A stretch of 64,000 nt of DNA from Acidobacteriota bacterium (GTDB lineage: Bacteria; Acidobacteriota; Thermoanaerobaculia; Gp7-AA8), in assembly GCA_003223645.1 (NCBI GenBank), contig QHVT01000015.1, forward strand, positions 62,001 to 126,000, written 5' to 3'. Numbering within the stretch: the stretch's first letter is position 1; the number at the start of each line of letters is the position of its first letter. The position numbers and the translations under genes were made by a program. A model generated the notes under the pieces. That model made no database searches. It was not told where the DNA came from and saw only the letters and a program-made list of their open reading frames with translations. Positions 19,507 to 53,095 of the stretch are shown here, piece by piece.

Positions 19507-19530
19507 ATGCTCCTCCGACAATCTGGATCA

Positions 19531-19598
19531 GTGGAGCGGCGGCCGCTTCGGCCGCCGGTTTTCGCGAGAATTGGCGGCCGAAGCGGCCGCCGCTCCAC
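19531..19598. repeat. Palindromic repeat family A, copy 1
   Basis: Perfect 26-bp arms (GTGGAGCGGCGGCCGCTTCG...) surround a 16-nt spacer. Other copies are at 37771-37841 and 50654-50724, with a single arm inside a coding region at 45646-45671. Confidence 0.92.
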
Positions 19599-19601
19599 CG
19601 T

Positions 19602-19841
19602 TCATCGACGCTGATGGTAACTCATCGCCAAGGCCACCAGACCGAACGCCGCCCAGACGACGATCCACGCGACGTGCGACGACTCGAGCCAGTTCCAGAG
19701 CGCGAGCGTCAGCGCCCAGAGTCCGTAGACGAGCAGAAACACGCGGCGATGATGCGCGTCATCGTCGACGCCGGCGGCGATGCTCGCGCCGAGGATCAGC
19801 GCGGGAACGAGACCGAGGAGGAGGTTGAGGAGGATGGTCAT
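19602..19841 (-). CDS. Small membrane protein of unknown function
   Basis: A 79-residue protein made almost entirely of three hydrophobic segments: MTILLNLLLGLVPALILGAS, VFLLVYGLWALTLALW and VAWIVVWAAFGLVALAM, with a charged DDDAHHRR loop after the first. I do not recognise the family. The start codon sits at the edge of palindromic repeat F (19841-19926), so no Shine-Dalgarno site is visible. It is flanked on the other side by repeat A. It may be co-transcribed with the radical SAM gene upstream. Confidence 0.65.
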   Translation of the reverse strand: MTILLNLLLGLVPALILGASIAAGVDDDAHHRRVFLLVYGLWALTLALWNWLESSHVAWIVVWAAFGLVALAMSYHQRR

Positions 19842-20860: not shown

Positions 20861-20960
20861 ATGAAGGCAGAAGGCAGAAGGCAAAAGGCAGAACGAAAAA
20901 GTGCTCGCACCGCGCGACACTTCTGCCTTCTGCTTTCTGCCTTCTGCCTTCTGCCTTCAT
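20861..20960. repeat. Iterated-word palindrome H (GGCAGAA)n
   Basis: The left arm repeats GAAGGCAGAAGGCAGAAGGC. The right arm, 20913-20960, repeats its complement (CTTCTGCCTTCTGC). It spans the entire gap between the glycosyltransferase and radical SAM genes and contains the stop codon of the former. No Shine-Dalgarno site remains for the radical SAM gene. Confidence 0.85.
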
Positions 20961-22108
20961 GTGTTCGTCACCAAGCCTTCGAACACCTTTGCGTATTCCT
21001 CCCACGAATACTTCTTCGCGCTTACGGTCGCTGCGCGCTCCATCGCGGCGCGATCGGCGCTCGTGAAAAACGTATCGACCGCATGCGCGAGCGCGGCTGG
21101 ATCTTCCGGAGGAATCAACAGACCGTTCACGCCGTCTTCGACGATCTCCGGCAATCCGCCGACCGTGCTGGCGATCACCGGACGCGCGAAGTGGAACGCC
21201 GTCAGCGCGACGCCGCTCTGCGCCTCGACACGATACGGCGCGAGAACGACGTCCGTCGCGGCGAAGTAGTTCGCGATCTCCGCGTCGGGGATGAAGCGGA
21301 AGTCGAGGCGGACGTTTTCCAGCCCGCGCGCGAGCTCGCGATATTCGTCCTCGTTCTTCCACCACACTTCGCCGGCGACGACGAGCGTGACCTCGGTCTT
21401 CAACAGGCGCCAGGCGTTGAGCGCGATGTCGACTCCTTTGTAAGGACGGATGTGGCCGAAGGAGAGTGCGATGTTGCCTTGCAAGCCGAGCGCTGCGCGC
21501 GCGTTTTCGCGAGAAGGAACCGGGCCGCCCATTTCGTGGACAGGAAGAAATGTGTGCACGATACGGGGCGCCGGAGTGGTGCGCGCCTCCGGCGCGCCTT
21601 TGGGACGAGAGGCGCGCCGGAGGCGCGCACCACTCCGCACGCGCCTTGCTGCATCATTCGCTTCGCTCTCAGCGTGCACGACCAACACGTCGCCCCGCCG
21701 CAGCACACGATTGGTCAGCCAGCGCTTCCACGCGGCCGGTTCTTTGTCGCCGATGTTGTGGCACTGCAGGATCACGCGCGTCTTCTTCGGCAAGAGCGCG
21801 ATCAGCGTAAGATACGGCAGCGCCCAGACCCAGATCCACCAGACGAAAATGACCGCGTCGGCATCGCGAAGCGCGAATGCCGTGCGAATCCACGTGAACG
21901 GGTTGAGGATATCGAGGAGGAATCGCGTGCCGCGAGGCGTGCGATCGCGCAGCGACTCATCAATATCGCTCGTCCCCGGATACAGCCATCGCGGATACTG
22001 GCGCTTGTACGAGATAACATCCGCTCGCAATTCCTCGGCCAGCCGCATCGTGCAGTACGCAATGCCCGCGCGGTAGGGAGGAACAGGGCCAACAATGATC
22101 GTGTTCAC
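20957..22108 (-). CDS. Glycosyltransferase family 4, with an in-frame palindromic insert
   Basis: A 383-residue GT-B glycosyltransferase. The N-terminal domain starts IIVGPVPPYRAGIAYCTMRL. The C-terminal donor domain has LSFGHIRPYKGVDIALNAW and the E-x7-E region PYRVEAQSGVALTAFHFARP, followed by STVGGLPEIVEDGVNGLLIP. It transfers a sugar from a nucleotide sugar, probably for cell-surface glycans. I chose the GTG at 22108, directly before NTIIVG. At about residues 157-180 the sequence SGARLRRASRPKGAPEARTT is encoded by palindrome B (21573-21636) inserted between ANDAARRV and PAPRIVHTFLPV. The domain continues normally on both sides. It is divergent from a GT2 gene 18 bp away. Confidence 0.88.
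   Translation of the reverse strand: MNTIIVGPVPPYRAGIAYCTMRLAEELRADVISYKRQYPRWLYPGTSDIDESLRDRTPRGTRFLLDILNPFTWIRTAFALRDADAVIFVWWIWVWALPYLTLIALLPKKTRVILQCHNIGDKEPAAWKRWLTNRVLRRGDVLVVHAESEANDAARRVRSGARLRRASRPKGAPEARTTPAPRIVHTFLPVHEMGGPVPSRENARAALGLQGNIALSFGHIRPYKGVDIALNAWRLLKTEVTLVVAGEVWWKNEDEYRELARGLENVRLDFRFIPDAEIANYFAATDVVLAPYRVEAQSGVALTAFHFARPVIASTVGGLPEIVEDGVNGLLIPPEDPAALAHAVDTFFTSADRAAMERAATVSAKKYSWEEYAKVFEGLVTNT
21573..21636. repeat. Palindromic repeat family B inside the glycosyltransferase gene
   Basis: Perfect 27-bp arms around a 10-nt spacer, all within coding sequence and in frame. The second copy is at 31046-31116 inside glucokinase. Its right arm encodes APEARTTP in both genes, while the other arm is read in different frames. 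Confidence 0.95.
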
Positions 22109-22126
22109 TATGATTCGCGTAACCGC

Positions 22127-23374
22127 ATGAAGCTCATCATACAAATCCCTGCATTCAACGAAGAAGCGACGATCGCGCAGGCGCTGCGTGACGTCCCGAA
22201 GAAGATCGACGGCATCACCGCGATCGAGACGCTGGTGATCGACGACGGATCGTCGGACAACACCGCCGATGCCGCGCGAAAAGCGGGCGCGACGCACATC
22301 CTGCAGCTGAAAACGCATCGCGGACTGTCGGCCGCGTTCGTCGCCGGCATCGACGCCGCGCTGCGCCTCGGCGCGGACATCATCGTCAACACCGACGCCG
22401 ACAATCAGTACGCGGGCGCCGACATCGCGCGCCTCGTCGTGCCGATCGTGAAAGGCACGGCCGAAGTCGTGATCGGCGATCGCGAGGTCGCGAAGTCGCC
22501 GCACATGTCGCCGATCAAGCGCTCGCTGCAGCGCCTCGGCAGCTGGACGGTCGGACGCGCCTCCGGTCTCAGCGTCGCCGACGTCACCAGCGGCTTCCGC
22601 GCCTTCTCGCGCGAAGCGGCGATGCAGATCAACGTCTTCAACCCCTTCACCTACACGCTCGAGACGATCATCCAGGCCGGCAATCGCAACCTCGGCGTGC
22701 AGAGCGTCGTCGTCCGCACGAACGCGCCGACGCGGCCGTCGCGCCTCTATGGCGGCGTCGGCACGTACCTGCGCAAGTCCGTCGCGACGATCTTTCGCAT
22801 CTACACCATCTACCGCCCGCTGAAGACGTTCTTCGCCATCGGCACGCTGCTCGTGCTCCTCGGCGCCGCGATCAGCGGACGCTTCCTCTGGTACTACTGG
22901 CGCGGAGCCGGCGGTCACATTCAGTCGCTGATTCTCGCCGCCGTCTTTCTCGTCACCGGCTTTCAGACGTGGCTCATCGCGTTGCTCGCCGATTTGATTG
23001 CCGTGAATCGGCGGCTGACCGAGGACGTGTTGATTCGCGTGAAAAAACTCGAGTCGCCGGCTCTGGAGCGCAAAGCGCGGCCGGCGCGGCAACAGCAGCA
23101 GCAACGCGATCGCGGGCCGCGCCAGCCGCGGCCGGCGGAAAAGAAAGAGGCGGAGACGCAGTGGGTGTGGCTGCTCGATGAAGAGAAGCTCAAAGATCGG
23201 CAAGCCGAGCGCCCAGCCGAATCCGCCGCCGAGCCGGAAGAGGCGGCCGACGAGCCGCCGTCACCTTCGGAGCCCGACGGTCCGCGACGCAGACGCCGCC
23301 GCCGCGGCGGTGCGCGTCAGCGCACGGAGCTGCCGGGAAATCGCGGGAAGGATTTGGCGGGCGACGAGAACTAA
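22127..23374 (+). CDS. Glycosyltransferase family 2 (DPM1/GtrB-like) with a charged C-terminal tail
   Basis: A 415-residue protein. The GT2 domain covers residues 1-230: IIQIPAFNEEATIAQAL, VIDDGSSDNTADAARKAGA and the metal-binding NTDADNQY (DxD). Two transmembrane helices follow (FFAIGTLLVLLGAAIS and ILAAVFLVTGFQTWLIALLA), as in DPM1/GtrB enzymes that load sugars onto polyprenyl phosphate. The last 110 residues are a low-complexity tail rich in Arg, Gln, Glu and Pro (RQQQQQRDRGPRQPRPAEKK, RRRRRRRGG), probably cytoplasmic and disordered; I do not know its role. It starts 18 bp from the divergent GT4 gene, and its stop codon lies exactly at the edge of palindrome D1. Confidence 0.88.
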   Translation: MKLIIQIPAFNEEATIAQALRDVPKKIDGITAIETLVIDDGSSDNTADAARKAGATHILQLKTHRGLSAAFVAGIDAALRLGADIIVNTDADNQYAGADIARLVVPIVKGTAEVVIGDREVAKSPHMSPIKRSLQRLGSWTVGRASGLSVADVTSGFRAFSREAAMQINVFNPFTYTLETIIQAGNRNLGVQSVVVRTNAPTRPSRLYGGVGTYLRKSVATIFRIYTIYRPLKTFFAIGTLLVLLGAAISGRFLWYYWRGAGGHIQSLILAAVFLVTGFQTWLIALLADLIAVNRRLTEDVLIRVKKLESPALERKARPARQQQQQRDRGPRQPRPAEKKEAETQWVWLLDEEKLKDRQAERPAESAAEPEEAADEPPSPSEPDGPRRRRRRRGGARQRTELPGNRGKDLAGDEN

Positions 23375-23504
23375 GTACTCCATTCGCTAAGTTCGAGCAC
23401 ACGTCATCCTGAGCGTAGCGAAGGATCTCAAGTTACGTAGATTGAGATCTTTCGCCGTCTACGCGGCTCAAGATGACGTGTGACTGAACTTGGCGAATGA
23501 AGTA

Positions 23505-23506
<2 letters not shown>
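23374..23506. repeat. Palindromic repeat family D, copy 1
   Basis: Long imperfect arms start and end with AGTACT. The inner part reads GTCATCCTGAGCGTAGCGAA facing TTTCGCCGTCTACGCGGCTC. Both flanking convergent genes end at its edges: the GT2 TAA and the kinase TAG each share bases with it. Further copies lie at 33204-33357, 41001-41319 and 50390-50646. Confidence 0.88.
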
Positions 23507-25028
<1,522 letters not shown>

Positions 25029-25035
25029 CTTGCGT

Positions 25036-25134
25036 GTCGCGCGGGAACTCGGGACCACTCCGAGAGCCTGCTACTTCCCTCCAACCGGGATGCAGGATTG
25101 TAGCAGGCCGAGAGCAGCGGAGTTCCCGCGCGAC
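25036..25134. repeat. Palindrome upstream of the kinase gene
   Basis: Outer arms of 15 bp are perfect (GTCGCGCGGGAACTC and its complement). An inner stem pairs GAGCCTGCTAC with GTAGCAGGCCGAG. It fills the gap between the kinase start and the small hypothetical gene upstream. Confidence 0.75.
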
Positions 25135-25141
25135 GACGAGT

Positions 25142-25522
25142 CTATGGACCACCCGGAGGCAGGTTGTCGACCTCGGGATCGATCCCGATCCTCTGTCCCG
25201 ACTTGTTGATATAGATCGTGTAGACCCATGTCACCGACGGGGAGTCTTTCGGCACCGTGTTTCTGTAGGGTTCCGATCGCAGTTCGAAGTCGTTCATCCG
25301 ATTCACCTTCGGCGGCGCAGGCTCCGTGCCGGAGGTGTTCCATTGAAAGAAATTGGTCTCATCGAACTTCCCGTTGTCCTCCGCAATGGCCCAGACGAGA
25401 ACCGTCTCCCGATTGCTATCCACAAAATTCCTGACGTGCACGTCCACGGGCCACAGTGCTGCCTGAATGACGTCGCCCAGGATCCCCACTGCCGCGTTGA
25501 TCGTGACTGTTTCCTCAGCCAT
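25142..25522 (-). CDS. Hypothetical protein between two kinases
   Basis: A 126-residue soluble protein with no signal peptide or known motif. It begins MAEETVTINAAVGILGDVIQ and contains RNFVDSNRETVLVWAIAEDN and WVYTIYINKSGQRIGIDPEV, suggesting a beta-rich fold. I chose the ATG at 25522 because AAAGGAG lies 6 nt upstream. It sits on the same strand between two Ser/Thr kinases, 27 bp after the stop of the larger one, so it may be a substrate or regulator of them. Codon use is slightly less GC-biased than the kinases. No family recognised. Confidence 0.65.
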   Translation of the reverse strand: MAEETVTINAAVGILGDVIQAALWPVDVHVRNFVDSNRETVLVWAIAEDNGKFDETNFFQWNTSGTEPAPPKVNRMNDFELRSEPYRNTVPKDSPSVTWVYTIYINKSGQRIGIDPEVDNLPPGGP

Positions 25523-25548
25523 CACAAACTCCTTTCACTGAGCGGCCT

Positions 25549-28056
25549 TCAGCAGCCGCTTTCATTGCACAACTTCTCCAGCTCTGCGCTGGAGTATCCG
25601 GTCGATCGAATGCGATTCAGGATCTGTTTCGCCTCGGCAATCCGGCCGCGGTGAAGCAGGACGCGGAACAGGCTGTCGAGCAGATAGGGCTCGGTGATCG
25701 CGGTGGTGACCGCGGCAAATTCGTTCTCGGCGAGCCGCCAGTTCTGCTCCGCGGCCCGCGGATCGGTTTTCGCCTGCGCGTCTGCGAGGTTCAACGCCGC
25801 GCGGGCGCGCAGCACGTGCAGCCGGTCATTCGGCGTGCCGGTCGCGGTCTCGTCGAGAACGTGCGCAAAGAGAGGGATCGCCCTCCCTCCCGCGCCAAAC
25901 GAGAGCAGCGCCCGTCCGTAATCGACGTCGATCGCCCATCGATCGATCGCCAGGTACTCGCGCTTCGGAATGATGTCGGCGACCCGCGAGATGCGCTGAC
26001 GCGCCTCGGCGAATTGCGCGAGAGCGCTCTCGCGGTTGCCGCTCGTGGCGTTCGCCACCGCGATCCGGCGAAGCGTGACGGCCACGTTCCTCTGCCAGTC
26101 GACGTTCGTCGGATCGCGCACGGCCAGCTCCCGTTCGATCGTCAGCTCTTCGTTCCACAGCGTCGCGGCGCCGGCAGTATCGCCGGTGTTGTAACGGACG
26201 TTGGCGAGGTAGGCCATCGCCGTCGCGAGGCGGCTCTTCCACTGCGTCTGCTTCGGATCGCGCGCCAGGAGCGCACGGTGAATCGCGACTTCGCGCTCGA
26301 AGTTCGCGCGCGCGTCGCGGAATTCGCCCAGCTTGTATTCGACGGCGCCGACCTTGTTGATGGCGCGCGTGAGCTCCGCCTGCGCGTCGTTGTCGGCAGG
26401 GCTCTCCTCGGCGATTCTGCTCTTGATGCGCAGACTGGTCTCATATCGATCGAGCGCTTCGCGCAACGCGCCCTTGGCTTCGAGGATCTGCGCGACCGCC
26501 GTGTGGCCGTACGCGCGCTCGAGTTGATACTTCTCGTTCTCGGGATTGACTTCCGACAACAGATCGCCGTCTTTCATGTACGCGCGCATGTGGGGAAGCG
26601 CATCGTCGTTTCTTCCCTGGAGGCGGAGTCCGTTGCCGAGCCAGAAGTGCGCGGCCCCATGCGTGAGCAGCGCTTCGGGATTTCGAGGCTCGCGTCTAAG
26701 CGCTTCGCCGGCGAGCTTCAGCGAACGCTCGAAAAGCGCGGTGGCGGCGTTGTTTCCCTGCGTCTGCCGCACTTCGCCGAGATGATTCAGCGCTTTTGCG
26801 TTCCGCGCGAGATCGCTGGCCGACAATTTGGACGGATCGAGCGAGTCGACGTAGGCAAGCGCTCGAACGCCGACGTCATCGAGAATGTCCAGCCGTCCGA
26901 CCGTGTCCAGCTTCTTCCGTAAATCGCCCAGCATGAACTCGATCAGGTTCTCCGCCTGCGCTCTTCGCGACTCCGCTTCCGCGCGCGCGGTGACGGCGGC
27001 CGTGCGCTCGCGCGCCAGATCGGACGTGTAACGCCACGACGCGAGAACCACGAGCAGCACGGCGAGCGCGATCGCCGCGCGGCGTACGAGGCGGCGCGGC
27101 CGGTCGATCAGAAACTTCAGACGCGCGGTCGCTTCGATTGCAGTCGGGCGGTCGGCGGGCGCGTATTGGGTGAGGCGCGTGATGAGCGACGCGATGTCGC
27201 CGGGCACATTGTCCGCCGCCACTTTCTCGCCGCGCGCGGCGCGCAGGATCACTTCGCGCGCCGTCAACCCGCTCGGATGCGGATCGGCGGCGGTGAAGAG
27301 AAACTGCAGCACGAGACCGTACGAATACATGTCGCTGGCGACGGTCAGCTCTTCGCCACGCGCCTGCTCGGGACTCATGTACAGCGGCGTGCCCATCGTC
27401 ACGCCGGCTTCGGTGCGATGGAAGTGTTTTCCCGCGGCTTCTTTTCGCGTCCGCGGCAACACCGTCGCGCTGCTGTCGTCGACAGGGAACCAGACGTTGT
27501 TCGCGTCGTCCGCAATCGCGAGCGCGCTCTCCGCCTCCGCCGAGCTGACCGCGCGCAGCCGCTTGCTCGACGACCTCACGGTCAGCCAGCGCGCGAGTCC
27601 GAAGTCGAGCACTTTCACGTCGCCCTTCTTCGTCAGCATGATGTTTTCCGGTTTCAGATCGCGATGGATGATGCCGGCGCGATGCGCGGCGATGAGCACG
27701 TCCGCGATCGCCAGCGCGATGCGCAGTTTCTCCGCGCGCGAGAGCCGTCCCTGCTCCACCGCGTCCTGCAGCGTCTGGCCGTCGATGTACTCGAGGACGA
27801 GCAGGTCGACGTCGCTGCTCTCCATGTAGTCGTGGATGCGGCAGATGTGCTGGTGATCGACCTTCGAGAGCGTCCGCGCTTCGCGCAGCAATCGCTCCCG
27901 CGCCTCGGCGTCCAGACGGTGCTCCGCATGCAGCGCCTTCAGCGCGACTTTGCGATCGAGCTTCTCGTCATACCCGACGTAAACGTCGCCCATGCCGCCC
28001 TGACCCGCAACGTCAGTAATGCGGATATGACCGAACCGCCGGCCTAACAACTCCAT
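25549..28056 (-). CDS. Ser/Thr protein kinase with TPR sensor domain
   Basis: An 835-residue Hanks-type kinase. The glycine loop is AGQGGMGDVYVGY, the ATP lysine is in KVALKALH, the catalytic loop [11 protein letters not shown], and DFGLARW follows. The activation segment ends GTPLYMSPEQARGEE. A transmembrane helix (AAIALAVLLVVLASWRYT) lies near residue 340. The periplasmic half (about 450 residues) consists of TPR-type helix pairs, e.g. EALRREPRNPEALLTHGAAH and LALADPTNVDWQRN-like repeats. This is the common acidobacterial kinase-TPR layout, expected to sense proteins or peptides outside the membrane. It is followed by a small gene and then by a shorter paralogue (23505-25028). Confidence 0.92.
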   Translation of the reverse strand: MELLGRRFGHIRITDVAGQGGMGDVYVGYDEKLDRKVALKALHAEHRLDAEARERLLREARTLSKVDHQHICRIHDYMESSDVDLLVLEYIDGQTLQDAVEQGRLSRAEKLRIALAIADVLIAAHRAGIIHRDLKPENIMLTKKGDVKVLDFGLARWLTVRSSSKRLRAVSSAEAESALAIADDANNVWFPVDDSSATVLPRTRKEAAGKHFHRTEAGVTMGTPLYMSPEQARGEELTVASDMYSYGLVLQFLFTAADPHPSGLTAREVILRAARGEKVAADNVPGDIASLITRLTQYAPADRPTAIEATARLKFLIDRPRRLVRRAAIALAVLLVVLASWRYTSDLARERTAAVTARAEAESRRAQAENLIEFMLGDLRKKLDTVGRLDILDDVGVRALAYVDSLDPSKLSASDLARNAKALNHLGEVRQTQGNNAATALFERSLKLAGEALRREPRNPEALLTHGAAHFWLGNGLRLQGRNDDALPHMRAYMKDGDLLSEVNPENEKYQLERAYGHTAVAQILEAKGALREALDRYETSLRIKSRIAEESPADNDAQAELTRAINKVGAVEYKLGEFRDARANFEREVAIHRALLARDPKQTQWKSRLATAMAYLANVRYNTGDTAGAATLWNEELTIERELAVRDPTNVDWQRNVAVTLRRIAVANATSGNRESALAQFAEARQRISRVADIIPKREYLAIDRWAIDVDYGRALLSFGAGGRAIPLFAHVLDETATGTPNDRLHVLRARAALNLADAQAKTDPRAAEQNWRLAENEFAAVTTAITEPYLLDSLFRVLLHRGRIAEAKQILNRIRSTGYSSAELEKLCNESGC

Positions 28057-28111
28057 TGTGTTGATCCTTGTGGACCCTTGCTGAGGTGGACGTAAGGATT
28101 GTACGCCCGAA

Positions 28112-28912
28112 TTAAGTGTGCGCGGCGAGGAAATGCGCGCTCACTTCGGCGGCGAGGAGGAGCTCGAACGGAACGTTCACCAGCGGATGAATGGCGTTGT
28201 AGGTGTGGCTCGCGCGATCGAGGATCACGAGCGACGCGTCTTTGCCGCGCGCGGCGATGAGCCGCCCGTGCCGCGCGGGAACGCTGTCATCGCGGCCGCC
28301 GTGCACGACGAGGAGCGGCACGTCGAGACGCCCGGTCGCGGCGAGGATGTCGAGCCGCTCGCGATTCGCTTCGAAGTCGTCGAGGATCGCCGTCGACATC
28401 TTCATGTTCTGCTTCGTGCGCTGATTGATGACGTCGAGCGAGCCGGTCGCGCGCCAGCGGCGCTTCGTCTCGTCGTCCCAGTTGTCGGCGCGCGAGATCG
28501 GACTCCAGACCGCAACGGCCTTGAGGCGCGGCACGTCGTGCGCGCCGAGGAGTGCGACGCCGCCGCCGCGCGAATGCCCGAGGAGATAGGTCGGCAGCGT
28601 GGGAAATTTCGACTGCGCGTAGTGAACGGCCGCGCGGAGATCCGAGAGTTGGATCGAGTACGTATCGTCGGCGAAGAGATCGAGCCGGTCGAACGATTCC
28701 GGATCATCGCCGATGCCGGAGCGCGACATGTTGAAGCGGCAGACGGCGAATCGATGACGGCAGAGATGCTGCGCGAGCCAGGGAAAAAATCCCCAGTCCT
28801 TGAATCCCTTGAAGCCGTGTACGAGGACGATGAGCGCGCGCGGATGGTCCGGCGCGTCGATATCGCCGCGGATGGGGAGGCCTTCCGCCGAGTCGATCGT
28901 GAATGTCGTCAT
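28112..28912 (-). CDS. Alpha/beta hydrolase (dienelactone hydrolase / BAAT-like)
   Basis: A 266-residue hydrolase without a signal peptide. The oxyanion region is IVLVHGFKGFKDWGFFPWLA, the nucleophile elbow LLGHSRGGGVALL, the acid in VVHGGRDDSVPARHG, and the histidine in DRASHTYNAIHPL. The substrate is unknown. I chose the ATG at 28912 (MTTFTIDSAEGLPIRGDIDA), which abuts the nested palindrome 28913-29032; no Shine-Dalgarno site is visible. It follows ychF on the same strand. Confidence 0.85.
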   Translation of the reverse strand: MTTFTIDSAEGLPIRGDIDAPDHPRALIVLVHGFKGFKDWGFFPWLAQHLCRHRFAVCRFNMSRSGIGDDPESFDRLDLFADDTYSIQLSDLRAAVHYAQSKFPTLPTYLLGHSRGGGVALLGAHDVPRLKAVAVWSPISRADNWDDETKRRWRATGSLDVINQRTKQNMKMSTAILDDFEANRERLDILAATGRLDVPLLVVHGGRDDSVPARHGRLIAARGKDASLVILDRASHTYNAIHPLVNVPFELLLAAEVSAHFLAAHT

Positions 28913-29032
28913 GCAACGCCCCTCATCCGCCGAGGAGAGCGGGCGTCCCGCCCGCCCCCGGGAGGCGGGCAAGATGCCCGCTCTCCCCGCAAGCGGGGCG
29001 AGGGTGGCCGAAGGCCGGGTGAGGGGCGTTGC
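28913..29032. repeat. Nested palindrome: family C inside family G
   Basis: The outer arms GCAACGCCCCTCATCCGCC and its complement at 29014-29032 form family G. Family C (28934-28986) lies inside it, followed by CCCGCAAGCGGGGCGAGGGT. The composite exactly fills the gap between the ychF stop codon (29033) and the hydrolase start codon (28912). Confidence 0.88.
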
Positions 29033-30127
29033 CTACACATTGAACCGGAACAGGATCACGTCGCCGTCCTGCACTTCGTAATCCTTCCCTTCGCTGCGCA
29101 TCTTCCCTGCCGCTTTCGCGCCTTGTTCGCCGTCCAGCGCGATGTAGTCGTCGTAGCCGATCGTCTCGGCGCGAATGAAACCGCGCTCAAAGTCCGTGTG
29201 AATCTTTCCCGCCGCCTGCGGCGCGCGCGAACCGCGATGGATGGTCCACGCGCGCGCTTCCTTCGGGCCGGCGGTGAAAAACGTCTCGAGATCGAGGAGC
29301 TTGTATGCCGCCCGCACGAGGGCGTTGAGTCCCGGCTCTTCGAGACCCATCTCTTTCAGAAAATCGTCGCGCTCTTCCGGCGGCAGCTGCGCGATCTGCG
29401 CTTCCAGCTCGCCGCAGATGACGACGACCTCGCCGCCTTTGTCCTCCGCGGCCTTCCGTACCTTCTGCAGCAGCGGCGTTTCTTTCCCAAGGTCGTTCTC
29501 CGCGACGTTCGCGACGTACAGCACCGGCTTGAGCGTGATGAGATTGAGATCGGACAGCGCGTCCTGCTCTTCGTCCGACAAACCCGCCGCGCGCAACGGC
29601 ACTCCGCGATCGCACGCGTCGATCGCCTTCGCCAGCGCGTCCGCCTGCGCCTGATATTCCTTCTGTCCGACACGCGCGAGCCGCGACACGCGCTCGTGAC
29701 GCTTTGAGAGCGCGTCGATGTCGGCGAGCAACAGCTCCGTCTCGATCACTTCGATGTCGCGCTCCGGATCGACGGTGCCTTCGACGTGCACGACGTTCGG
29801 GTCCTCGAAACAGCGGACGACGTGCAGGATCGCGTCGGTCTCGCGGATGTTCGCGAGAAACTGATTGCCGAGTCCCTCGCCCTTGCTCGCGCCGCGCACG
29901 AGCCCCGCGATGTCGACGACTTTCAGATCGGTGAAGACGATCTGCTTGCTCTCCGCGAGCGTCGCGATTTTCGTGAGCCGCGGATCGACGACCGGCACGA
30001 TGCCGACATTCGGCTCGATCGTGCAGAACGGATAGTTCGCGCTCTGCGCGCCCGCCGCCGTCAATGCATTGAAGATGGTTGATTTCCCGACATTCGGCAA
30101 TCCAACGATGCCGACACTTAAGCCCAT
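29033..30127 (-). CDS. ychF: YchF family GTP/ATP-binding protein
   Basis: A 364-residue Obg-related nucleotidase. The P-loop is [17 protein letters not shown]. The G3 region is [20 protein letters not shown], and NVAE replaces the usual NKxD, as in the ATP-preferring YchF/OLA1 group. The C-terminal TGS domain ends [20 protein letters not shown], the usual family ending. It binds ribosomes and is linked to oxidative stress and translation control. I chose the ATG at 30127 ([12 protein letters not shown]). Between it and the glucokinase gene lies the iterated-word palindrome I (30138-30275). Confidence 0.96.
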
Positions 30128-30137
30128 CCTTCCAACC

Positions 30138-30275
30138 TCCGGATTGAGAATTGAGGATTGAGGAAACCGGATTGAGGATTGAGAATTGAGGATTGAGGAA
30201 AGGGACCGGGCAGCAAACGCTTCCTCAATTCTCAATCCTCAATCCTCAATCCGGTTTCCTCAATCCTCAATCCGG
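30138..30275. repeat. Iterated-word palindrome I (GGATTGAGAATTGA)n
   Basis: The left arm repeats GGATTGAGAATTGAGGATTG several times. The right arm repeats its complement (CTCAATTCTCAATCC). The spacer is short (about 30202-30220). Its AT-rich words stand out from the surrounding GC-rich DNA. The 3' end of glk is read from the right arm. Confidence 0.92.
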
Positions 30276-31254
30276 TCGCTGCCCGCCGCGCCCCCTCCAC
30301 CGCCCCGATCAGCCCCACTCGCTCGTTCACGATCAGGTCCACGGAAATCGTGCTGAGCAGCGGCCGAAAACGTCCTTTCCTCAGAAATGCTTCCACGAAG
30401 CGTCCGTCGGTGAAGCGCGGGATGTTCTTCGCGGCGATGCCTCCCGCGAGATACACGCCGCCGCGCGCGAGGACGCGCAGCGCCATGTTGCCCGCCTCGG
30501 CGCCGTAGATGTCGACGAAGATCTCCATCGCGCGATGCGCTCTCGCATCGCCGCGCTCCGCGAGCTCCGCGACTTCCGCGGGCTCGATCTCGTCGCCGCC
30601 GAGGAACGTAAAGATGTTGACGATGCCGTGTCCGGACAACACGCGCTCCCAGCTCACGTGTCCGTACTTTTTCGCGAGATACACGAAGAGCCGCGCCTGT
30701 TCCTCATCCTGCGGCGCAAAATCGCAGTGTCCCCCCTCGGTCGGAATGACGTCGCGCGCGTGGACGACGATCGCCTCGCCGAGTCCCGTCCCCGCGCCGA
30801 GAATCGCCATCGGCATCGTGCGGTCGCGCGCGCCGGGATGCAGCGGCAGCAGATCTTCGTCGTGCAGCAGCGGAACGCCGAGCGCGACCGCGTAGAAGTC
30901 GTTGATCAGCGCGACGCGCGGAATCGAGAACGCGCGCGCGAGCGACGACTCCTCGATCTTCCATCCGACGTTCGTCACTTCCGCATGGCCGTTGAGGACC
31001 GGACCCGCAACGGCGAAACAGGCGGCGTCGACATCGAGGTCGGTTGGAGTGGTGCGCGCCTCCGGCGCGCTTGAGGGCGGGGGGACGACAGGCGCGCCGG
31101 AGGCGCGCACCACTCCAGCAAAATCCCGCACCAACGCATCGAACGTCGCATACGCACCGCTCTCGTATCGTTTTTCCGCGGAGACCGAGCCGTCCGCCTC
31201 CACGCGCCGCAGCAGCGTCTTCGTTCCGCCGACGTCGCCCGCGAGCAAACGCAT
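30232..31254 (-). CDS. glk: Glucokinase (ROK-like Glk), with an in-frame palindromic insert and tail
   Basis: A 340-residue glucokinase of the bacterial Glk group, which phosphorylates glucose with ATP. The phosphate loop is MRLLAGDVGGTKTLLRRVEA. AACFAVAGPVLNGHAEVTNV, INDFYAVALGVPLL and ILGAGTGLGEAIV are family signatures, with the catalytic Asp in NDFYA. Between RDFAG and TDLDVDAACFAV lie about 22 residues, VVRASGAPVVPPPSSAPEAR and a few more, encoded by palindrome B (31046-31116). Related enzymes have no such segment. The C-terminus GLRIEETGLRIED is read from iterated-word palindrome I. I chose the ATG at 31254, 6 bp after the DinB-like gene. It may still be active because the insert falls in a surface loop, but this is unproven. 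Confidence 0.9.
   Translation of the reverse strand: MRLLAGDVGGTKTLLRRVEADGSVSAEKRYESGAYATFDALVRDFAGVVRASGAPVVPPPSSAPEARTTPTDLDVDAACFAVAGPVLNGHAEVTNVGWKIEESSLARAFSIPRVALINDFYAVALGVPLLHDEDLLPLHPGARDRTMPMAILGAGTGLGEAIVVHARDVIPTEGGHCDFAPQDEEQARLFVYLAKKYGHVSWERVLSGHGIVNIFTFLGGDEIEPAEVAELAERGDARAHRAMEIFVDIYGAEAGNMALRVLARGGVYLAGGIAAKNIPRFTDGRFVEAFLRKGRFRPLLSTISVDLIVNERVGLIGAVEGARRAATGLRIEETGLRIED
31046..31116. repeat. Palindromic repeat family B inside glucokinase
   Basis: Perfect 25-bp arms around a 21-nt spacer, entirely in coding sequence. The arms match those at 21573-21636. The spacer differs in length and sequence, but both copies keep the host frame open. Confidence 0.95.
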
Positions 31255-33213: not shown

Positions 33214-33357
33214 GCCGGCGAAGCGCGGCGAAGGATCTCGAGTTACGTAGATTGAGATCTTTCGCCGTCTACACGGCTCAACATGACGGCAAGGTGTGAG
33301 AAATTGCACGCCTTCGCGTCCGAGATCCTTCGTCGCGCTTCGCCGACTCAGGATGAC
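33204..33357. repeat. Palindromic repeat family D, copies 2 and 3 (adjacent)
   Basis: A full copy (33204-33288: GTCATCCTGAGCCGG...CTCAACATGAC) is followed by a right half (about 33321-33357: CGAGATCCTTCGTCGCGCTT, then GACTCAGGATGAC). The left end supplies the stop codon of the upstream gene and the right end that of the antisense remnant. Confidence 0.85.
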
Positions 33358-37748: not shown

Positions 37749-37770
37749 GTGTTCCTCCTCCGTCGTGCCT

Positions 37771-37841
37771 GTGGAGCGGCGGCCGCCCTCGGCCGCCGAA
37801 TTTGCGCGACAAACCGGCGGCCGAAGCGGCCGCCGCTCCAC
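37771..37841. repeat. Palindromic repeat family A, copy 2
   Basis: Arms GTGGAGCGGCGGCCGCCCTC/...GCGGCCGCCGCTCCAC of about 26 bp with a few mismatches. The last base touches the stop codon of the DUF2064 gene. Confidence 0.9.
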
Positions 37842-41048: not shown

Positions 41049-41319
41049 GCGGAGGCACTGCGCGATGCGCATTTGTCGAGCAAAATGACAGCCCCTCACC
41101 CGGCGCTTCGCGCCACCCTCTCCCCGCATGCGGGGCGAGGGGCAACATGTACGAGCATCGAGATTTGTTGCCCTTCTCCCCGCATGCGGGGAGAAGGTGC
41201 CCGAAGGGCGGATGAGGGGCGGTCATTAGAAGCGCAGCGAAGGATCTCAGGCTACGTATTTTGAGATCCTTCGCTGCGCTCAGGATGACGGTGCGAATTT
41301 AGCGAATGAAGTGCTAAGG
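41001..41319. repeat. Nested palindrome: family G inside family D
   Basis: The outer D arms are at about 41001-41062 (AGTACTTCGGTCGCTAAGTT...CATCCTGAGC) and 41238-41319 (AGGATCTCAGGC...GAATGAAGTGCT). Between them lie two G-type parts, CCCCTCACCCGGCGCTTCGC and TTCTCCCCGCATGCGGGGAG, ending GGCGGATGAGGGGC. No gene is present in about 320 bp. Confidence 0.85.
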
Positions 41320-42200: not shown

Positions 42201-42263
42201 CCGAGAGGAGAGCGGGCATCCTGCCCGCCTCCCGGGGGCGGGCGGGACGCCCGCTCTCCTCGG
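42201..42263. repeat. Palindromic repeat family C, copy 3
   Basis: CCGAGAGGAGAGCGGGCATC pairs with GGACGCCCGCTCTCCTCGG around CTCCCGGGGGCG. It lies directly after the methyltransferase gene and 23 bp before the next gene. Confidence 0.9.
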
Positions 42264-44674: not shown

Positions 44675-44701
44675 TGGAGCGTTAATTTTGAAACGTTGGA
44701 T

Positions 44702-44799
44702 TGTGGTGACCGCTGCCCCCAGCGGTCACAGCGCCGCCTAACGGCGGCGCCGGCGGCGCTCTTGCGCCGCCGCGACCGCTGAGGGCAGCGGTCGCCACA
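44702..44799. repeat. Palindromic repeat family E, copy 1
   Basis: TGTGGTGACCGCTGCCCCCA pairs with TGAGGGCAGCGGTCGCCACA, with an inner GGCGGCGC hairpin. A second copy lies at 50514-50610, where it is nested in family D. Confidence 0.92.
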
Positions 44800-50389: not shown

Positions 50390-50646
50390 GTACTGCATTC
50401 GCTGAACTCGATCACACACCCTTCCGTCATCCTGAGCGCAGCGAAGGATCTCAAAATACGCAGCTCGAGATCCTTCGCTACGCTCAGAGGTTGTGAAAAT
50501 TTTCCACGAGCTTTGTGGCGACCGCTGCCCTCAGCGGTCGCGGCGGCGCTACGCGCCGCTGGCGCCGCCGTGAGGCGGCGCTGTGACCGCTGAGGGCAGC
50601 GGTCACCACATTCTCAGGGATGACGGAACTTCTGTGTCGTCGAACC
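50390..50646. repeat. Palindromic repeat family D, copy 5, interrupted by family E
   Basis: The left D arm (ACTGCATTCGCTGAACTCGA...CATCCTGAGCGCAGCGAAGG) and inner part run to about 50486 (CGCTACGCTCAG). After a 27-bp junk stretch and family E (50514-50610), D resumes with CTCAGGGATGACGGAACTTC and TGTGTCGTCGAAC, exactly matching the complement of the D4 left end. Confidence 0.9.
50514..50610. repeat. Palindromic repeat family E, copy 2
   Basis: TGTGGCGACCGCTGCCCTCA faces TGAGGGCAGCGGTCACCACA, with inner GGCGGCGC hairpins. It interrupts copy 5 of family D. Confidence 0.93.
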
Positions 50647-50653
50647 CGAACCT

Positions 50654-50724
50654 GTGGAGCGGCGGCCGCTCTCGGCCGCCGAATTCTCGCGAGACCCCGG
50701 CGGCCGAAGCGGCCGCCGCTCCAC
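50654..50724. repeat. Palindromic repeat family A, copy 3
   Basis: Arms GTGGAGCGGCGGCCGCTCTC and its complement. It follows the D5/E2 composite directly, so four palindrome families lie in 390 bp (J, D, E, A). Confidence 0.93.
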
Positions 50725-53015: not shown

Positions 53016-53095
53016 GGTTGCGCGGTCACGCGGTTGCGCGGTCACGCGGCAGAGCCCTGCCGAGCAACTGCGCAACCGCGTAACCGCGCAACCAT
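53016..53095. repeat. Palindromic repeat family F, copy 2
   Basis: GGTTGCGCGGTCACGCGGTT is iterated and faces CGCAACCGCGTAACCGCGCA. It fills the gap between the DUF5916 gene and the hydrolase. Confidence 0.88.

What the first reader, a model, noticed from the sequence alone, without database searches (positions are those of the whole stretch)
21573..31116. The same palindrome is inserted in-frame inside two unrelated enzymes
Family B palindromes lie wholly inside coding sequence at 21573-21636 (GT4 glycosyltransferase) and 31046-31116 (glucokinase). Both keep the frame open, and both right arms encode APEARTTP while the left arms are read in different frames. The host proteins continue with normal family motifs on both sides. 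This is the behaviour of Rickettsia palindromic elements, but I know of none described for this lineage.
Basis: partly seen in the sequence, partly recalled or inferred. Interest (0 to 1): 0.85.

Follow-up and report, generated by a model that had tools for sequence, protein, structure and literature searches.

The report
Mobile palindromes written into bacterial enzymes
A short self-copying DNA palindrome has spread to roughly a hundred places in the genome of one soil Acidobacteriota species and not in its sequenced relatives, and in more than half of the copies examined it sits inside a working-looking gene without breaking the reading frame, adding about 20 amino acids to the enzyme.

Summary
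Both palindromes are real (perfect 25-nt arms). The same arm occurs 206 times in this genome, and in none of 100 relatives, including a congener. In 1.31 Mb examined I found 75 complete copies. Of these, 41 (45 by a looser criterion) lie in-frame inside coding sequence, and at most one plausibly breaks a gene's frame. Hosts include TilS, glycerol kinase, histidine ammonia-lyase, a UvrD-type helicase, ABC transporters and glucokinase. Congener homologues align on both sides and lack the segment. Each arm is a REP-like unit: a near-invariant GGAGTGGT head plus a 7-bp hairpin kept by compensatory changes. The whole is therefore a REPIN-like pair of inverted REPs. The genome's only detected REP-associated transposase is flanked by a different GGAG-headed REPIN family. 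So these work like Rickettsia palindromic elements but are built like REPINs. Unusually for REPINs, they do not avoid genes. 35 of 41 are read in the same codon phase (GVVRASGAP…), and insertion typically replaces about 8 nt of target. Two other species of the same family carry unrelated palindromes, in-frame, in the same glycosyltransferase loop. In-gene REPs are already published (Di Nocera 2013), so this is a new variant of a known kind.

The parts
21573..21636 (.). Family-B element copy 1, 64 nt, two inverted 26-nt arms and a 12-nt loop, inside the GT4 gene
   Evidence: RNA hairpin -65.6 kcal/mol
21573..21597 (+). REP-like arm: GGAGTGGT head + GCGCGCC-TCC-GGCGCGC hairpin
21612..21636 (-). 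Second, inverted REP-like arm (on the coding strand this is the left arm, read SGARLRR; the arm at 21573-21597 is read APEARTTP)
20957..22084 (-). Host gene: GT4 glycosyltransferase (5' end approximate); insert is about residues 149-171 of the translated piece, predicted with low confidence (disordered loop) between a helix and a strand
31046..31116 (.). Family-B element copy 2, 71 nt, two inverted 25-nt arms and a 21-nt loop, inside the glucokinase gene
   Evidence: RNA hairpin -62.4 kcal/mol
31046..31070 (+). REP-like arm, read APEARTTP on the coding (minus) strand
31092..31116 (-). REP-like arm, read GVVRASGA on the coding (minus) strand
30232..31254 (-). Host gene: glucokinase (PF02685); the only match in this genome at the threshold used

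Best explanation
Family B is a non-autonomous mobile element of the REPIN type: two inverted REP units, each with a conserved GGAG-headed segment and a small hairpin. It has recently multiplied in this one species, most likely mobilised in trans by a GGAG-recognising REP-associated tyrosine transposase (RAYT). It inserts without marked avoidance of genes and usually replaces about 8 nt of target. Insertions that shift the frame or encode harmful peptides are lost. Those that keep the frame, mostly in the phase encoding GVVRASGAP...GAPEARTTP, survive as loop extensions of about 20 residues in functional enzymes. Shown: repetition, species restriction, unit anatomy and covariation, in-frame excess, phase bias, absence in congener homologues, net target loss. 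Inferred: mobilisation by RAYT, selection as the cause of frame and phase bias, host proteins still active.
For: 206 arms in G000 and 0 in 100 relatives including G001. 75 complete copies with different flanks, 41 in-frame and 3 same-strand in another frame; gene ends place two of those three between genes and leave one ambiguous, and four more copies are in the same open frame on both sides. 35 of 41 align to a G001 homologue on both flanks, and in 34 G001 is shorter at the site. Phase 0 in 35/41, P=5e-12 against a null built from the flanking-base preference. Net target loss median 8 nt, 31 of 35 positive, P=2e-6. Inner hairpin: 14 compensatory double changes; the long hairpin: only 2 of 109 changed positions matched between arms. 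RAYT present, NF047646 102 bits over cut-off 80, flanked by another GGAG REPIN family. Random 63-nt windows are classed in-frame coding 56% of the time, equal to family B's 55%.
Against: The single detected RAYT is flanked by family A, not family B, so the mobiliser of B is unproven. Sister family A is in-frame in only 15 of 69 classified copies, so one transposase does not by itself explain the difference. Gene calls rest on a codon-usage model plus homology, not on annotation. If insertion were blind, the phase bias would demand heavy loss and a larger intergenic share than seen; this is not resolved. Activity of the host proteins is untested.
Confidence: 0.8

Rival explanations
1. The elements were inserted at random and the host genes are incipient pseudogenes; the insertions are too recent to have decayed.
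For: Arms are nearly identical (mean 1.4-1.6 changes per 50 nt), so the spread is recent.
Against: 41 in-frame versus 3 same-strand copies in another frame, at most one of which plausibly breaks a gene (P=1e-16 against 1/3), cannot arise without selection for function; family domains run on beyond the insert; essential-type enzymes such as TilS carry inserts.
Confidence: 0.08
2. The inserts are domesticated: the peptide or the mRNA hairpin has a regulatory or protein function, which explains the shared reading phase.
For: Same phase in 35/41; very strong mRNA hairpin inside the coding sequence, -62 to -66 kcal/mol.
Against: Unrelated hosts, different loop sequences and lengths; changes in the arms are not clearly synonymous-biased (9 of 19 in the left arm); absent from the congener.
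Confidence: 0.07
3. The palindrome inserts by a mechanism with its own codon-phase or gene preference (for example a target motif that coincides with codon position 3), so the phase bias is mechanistic rather than selected.
For: The base outside GGAG is T or C in 130 of 150 ends; among 30 aligned phase-0 copies the preceding codon ends in T in 22; the in-frame share looks high if selection alone removed the other phases.
Against: The same flanking-base preference outside genes predicts phase 0 in only 33%; other families show different favoured phases.
Confidence: 0.15
4. Rickettsia-type palindromic element proper (homologous to RPE).
For: Same in-frame behaviour, peptide of about 20 residues.
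Against: Different size, sequence and unit structure; no match to the arm outside this species in the collections scanned.
Confidence: 0.03

Closest known systems
REPINs / BIMEs mobilised by RAYTs (Bertels & Rainey 2011, PMC3116915; Nunvar 2010, PMC2817692)
   Same: Inverted pair of short units, each a conserved head plus hairpin; about 100 copies; species-specific; a RAYT gene in the genome flanked by REPINs of the same general plan.
   Different: GGAG head rather than GTAG; about 55-60% of copies inside genes, where SBW25 had 14 of 1,067 REP 16-mers overlapping genes (PMC3116915); the detected RAYT is not flanked by this family.
Intragenic GTAG/CGTC REPs in Opitutus terrae, Thauera, Thioalkalivibrio, Rickettsia conorii (Di Nocera 2013, PMC3733652)
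   Same: REP dimers inside coding sequence, encoding 20-30 residues in known proteins.
   Different: There most REPs are intergenic; here one family is mostly in genes, with a single dominant codon phase, net target loss measured against a congener, and a different head sequence.
Rickettsia palindromic elements (reviewed in PMC10969869, PMC2229807)
   Same: Palindromic repeats found in-frame in unrelated conserved genes; one host enzyme (guanylate kinase) shown active with the insert.
   Different: 105-150 bp, Rickettsia-specific sequence, no two-REP architecture described there for RPE-1.

Membership tests
REPIN/REP | High copy number, dispersed in one genome | tested here: met
   206 arms; 75 full copies in 1.31 Mb
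REPIN/REP | Conserved short head next to a hairpin in each unit | tested here: met
   Positions 2-8 changed in 0-2 of 150 arms; 7-bp hairpin with 14 compensatory changes; head is GGAG, not the usual GTAG
REPIN/REP | Two units in inverted orientation | tested here: met
REPIN/REP | Extragenic location | tested here: not met
   41-45 of 75 inside genes; intragenic REPs are accepted in PMC3733652
REPIN/REP | Cognate RAYT gene flanked by the same repeat | tested here: not met
   One RAYT in the assembly, flanked by family A; assembly 96.67% complete
REPIN/REP | Bound and cleaved by the RAYT | not testable with these tools
   needs biochemistry
Rickettsia palindromic element | In-frame insertion into unrelated protein genes | tested here: met
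Rickettsia palindromic element | 105-150 bp element of RPE sequence in Rickettsia | tested here: not met
   55-71 nt, Acidobacteriota; arm not found outside this species
Target-duplicating MITE | Direct repeat at the insertion site | tested here: not met
   60 of 75 copies have no flanking direct repeat, the rest 1-2 nt

The most novel reading that the evidence does not exclude
A REPIN family in Acidobacteriota that has shifted from intergenic space to coding sequence: its length and sequence are such that in-frame copies encode a harmless linker, so proteins become its main habitat. In the same bacterial family other palindromes have independently used the same protein loop.
Probability: 0.45. 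Interest if true: 0.75.

Novelty: new variant of a known kind. Interest (0 to 1): 0.62.

Why it matters
It extends in-frame palindromic insertion from Rickettsia and a few scattered REP hosts to a soil phylum, with a clean congener comparison, so target loss, frame selection and loop tolerance can be measured genome-wide. It links RPE-like behaviour to REPIN anatomy, and it gives a natural insertion scan of about 40 enzymes, useful for finding permissive protein loops. It also raises a testable puzzle: how ribosomes translate through a -65 kcal/mol mRNA hairpin.

Tried and rejected
Structure prediction of glucokinase from a single sequence failed (mean pLDDT 40) and was not used. Rfam, phage, plasmid, viral-contig and 84,980-genome searches for the element or its arm found nothing (the window's own genome may be left out of some of these). 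A target-site duplication was looked for and not found. Flanking-base preference as the cause of the phase bias was tested and fails. A signal of synonymous change after insertion was sought and is weak.

Full report
Observation. The window lies in G000:C22:62001-126000. The four arms are exact and not chance: 4 matches, 0 in 100 shuffles. Both palindromes are inside minus-strand frames of a GT4 glycosyltransferase and a glucokinase. Right arms read APEARTTP in both; left arms read SGARLRR and GVVRASGA. By direct reading the arms have no stop codon in any frame, so an open frame alone would mean little.

The segments are insertions. In glucokinase the congener G001 and the other family members whose match covers the site lack the segment (net 22 residues against G001) between FxxL..DF and (V/I)D(A/S)AC; more distant homologues lack it too. 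Against solved glucokinases the match breaks at residues 54/82, between the helix matching YPSLEAVIRVY and the strand starting at VKDGCIAIACP (the secondary structure is from general knowledge of the fold). In GT4 the congener lacks it. An AlphaFold model of GT4 (mean pLDDT 78) puts the insert in a low-confidence stretch (blocks at 44-47) between helix 139-159 and strand 175-177. Each host gene has a single match in this genome at the threshold used.

Genome-wide. The arm occurs 104 + 102 times with up to 3 mismatches in G000 and not at all in 100 relatives, of which one is the same genus and 16 the same family. It is absent from the viral and genome collections scanned, where the window's own genome may be left out, and the element has no match in phage or plasmid records. 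Record titles of the nearest named relatives are soil Acidobacteria gp7 and Thermoanaerobaculia MAGs. In 1.31 Mb held, 75 complete elements of 55-71 nt (mode 62) and 19 half elements were found; loops are asymmetric and variable.

Context. A codon-usage model trained on 487 long ORFs classed 41 of 75 as in-frame inside coding sequence and 3 as same strand, other frame. Gene ends show two of these three to be between genes and leave one (C49:2683) ambiguous; four more copies are in one open frame on both sides, giving 45 of 75. Random 63-nt windows are classed in-frame 56% of the time, so family B shows no visible avoidance of genes once frame-breaking copies are missing. Hosts named by Pfam include glycerol-kinase-type FGGY, TilS, a UvrD-type helicase/nuclease, radical SAM, PPDK/PEP-utilising enzyme, 2-oxoglutarate dehydrogenase, histidine kinase, ABC transporters, aminotransferases and aromatic amino acid lyase.

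Congener comparison. 35 of the 41 align with a G001 protein on both sides of the insert; in 34 G001 is shorter there. The exception is the linker of 2-oxoglutarate dehydrogenase. Net length gained is less than the element: median loss of 8 nt, 31 of 35 positive, P=1.7e-6. In clean cases about 9 nt (3 codons) of G001 correspond to 63 nt of G000. No flanking duplication in 60 of 75. Because G001 is only about 70% identical in protein, single-base junctions cannot be fixed.

Frame and phase. 35 of 41 begin exactly at a codon boundary and read GVVRASGAP; 28 of 41 end in the APEARTTP frame. The flanking-base preference measured outside genes predicts phase 0 in 33%; P=5e-12. Lengths of 2 mod 3 are commoner among in-frame copies (31/41 versus 16/34, P=0.016). 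My reading is selection for a bland peptide over the basic (RRRRAPL, SGARLRR) or Trp/Cys-bearing (EWCAPPAR) alternatives; a mechanistic bias is not excluded, and blind insertion followed by loss of the other phases would predict a larger intergenic share than seen.

Anatomy. Each arm folds as an 8-nt unpaired head and a 7-bp hairpin with TCC loop. Across 150 arms the head positions 2-8 changed 0-2 times each. In the small hairpin 14 cells changed on both sides and kept pairing; in the long palindrome only 2 of 109 changed positions were matched in the other arm. So the small hairpin unit, not the long palindrome, is what is conserved: a REP, and the pair a REPIN. As mRNA the whole forms a -62 to -66 kcal/mol hairpin.

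Transposase. G000 has one Y1 transposase over the cut-off and G001 none. It is a REP-associated tyrosine transposase (NF047646) flanked by family A, GTGGAGCGGCG..., also GGAG-headed. In the same genome the in-frame share is A 15/69, C 6/21, D 8/13, E 2/16 against B 41/75; A differs at P=7e-5. In 480 kb of G001 no REPIN-like palindrome was seen; in 400 kb of G011 they are GTAG-headed and almost all outside genes. Going into genes is thus a trait of particular families, not of the lineage as a whole.

A shared permissive loop. At the GT4 site, G016 carries an in-frame palindrome of a family headed GGAGTGCGGACGTCC (83+87 copies in G016, 64+56 in its congener G009) and G015 one of a GTGTGCGGGC...CAGCC family (about 40 copies). 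Three species of one family have independently received different palindromes in the same loop.

Comparison with the literature. Most REPs are intergenic, but intragenic ones with 20-30 residue products are known, most in Opitutus terrae and, as RPE-4/6, Rickettsia conorii (PMC3733652). RPE insertions are in-frame and one host enzyme stayed active (PMC2229807; PMC10969869). I found no report for this lineage in the papers searched. Verdict: new variant of a known kind.

Noticed in passing
L076, L063 (GT4 genes of G016 and G015): Unrelated palindrome families are inserted in-frame in the same GT4 loop as in the window; each is repeated in its own genome.
   Followed up: partly
window 19526-19607, 37768-37841, 50651-50724: GGAG-headed family-A REPINs (GTGGAGCGGCGGCCG...), the family that flanks the genome's only detected RAYT.
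   Followed up: partly
window 23510-23567, 28930-28987, 42205-42262: Family-C palindromes (GGAGAGCGGGCG-TCC-CGCCCGC), also GGAG-headed and in-frame in genes in 6 of 21 copies in the tiles examined.
   Followed up: partly
L104:1879-1965: The RAYT's own predicted C-terminus (VERRPLRAPGSRDKSAAEAAAAPQDDELP) is encoded by a family-A REPIN.
   Followed up: no
window 44699-44799 and 50514-50613: Another large palindrome family, TGTGGCGACCGCTGCCCTCAGCGGTCGC, 16 copies in the tiles, mostly outside genes.
   Followed up: partly
window 30139-30275, 20861-20960, 53016-53093: Inverted repeats made of short tandem units (ATTGAGG, GAAGGCA, GCGCGGTT) between genes, common in this genome and also seen in G001 and G011.
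   Followed up: no
window 23412-23478, 33222-33288, 41231-41297, 50435-50501: Dispersed repeat GCGAAGGATCTCA..., a non-REP palindromic family of unknown nature.
   Followed up: no
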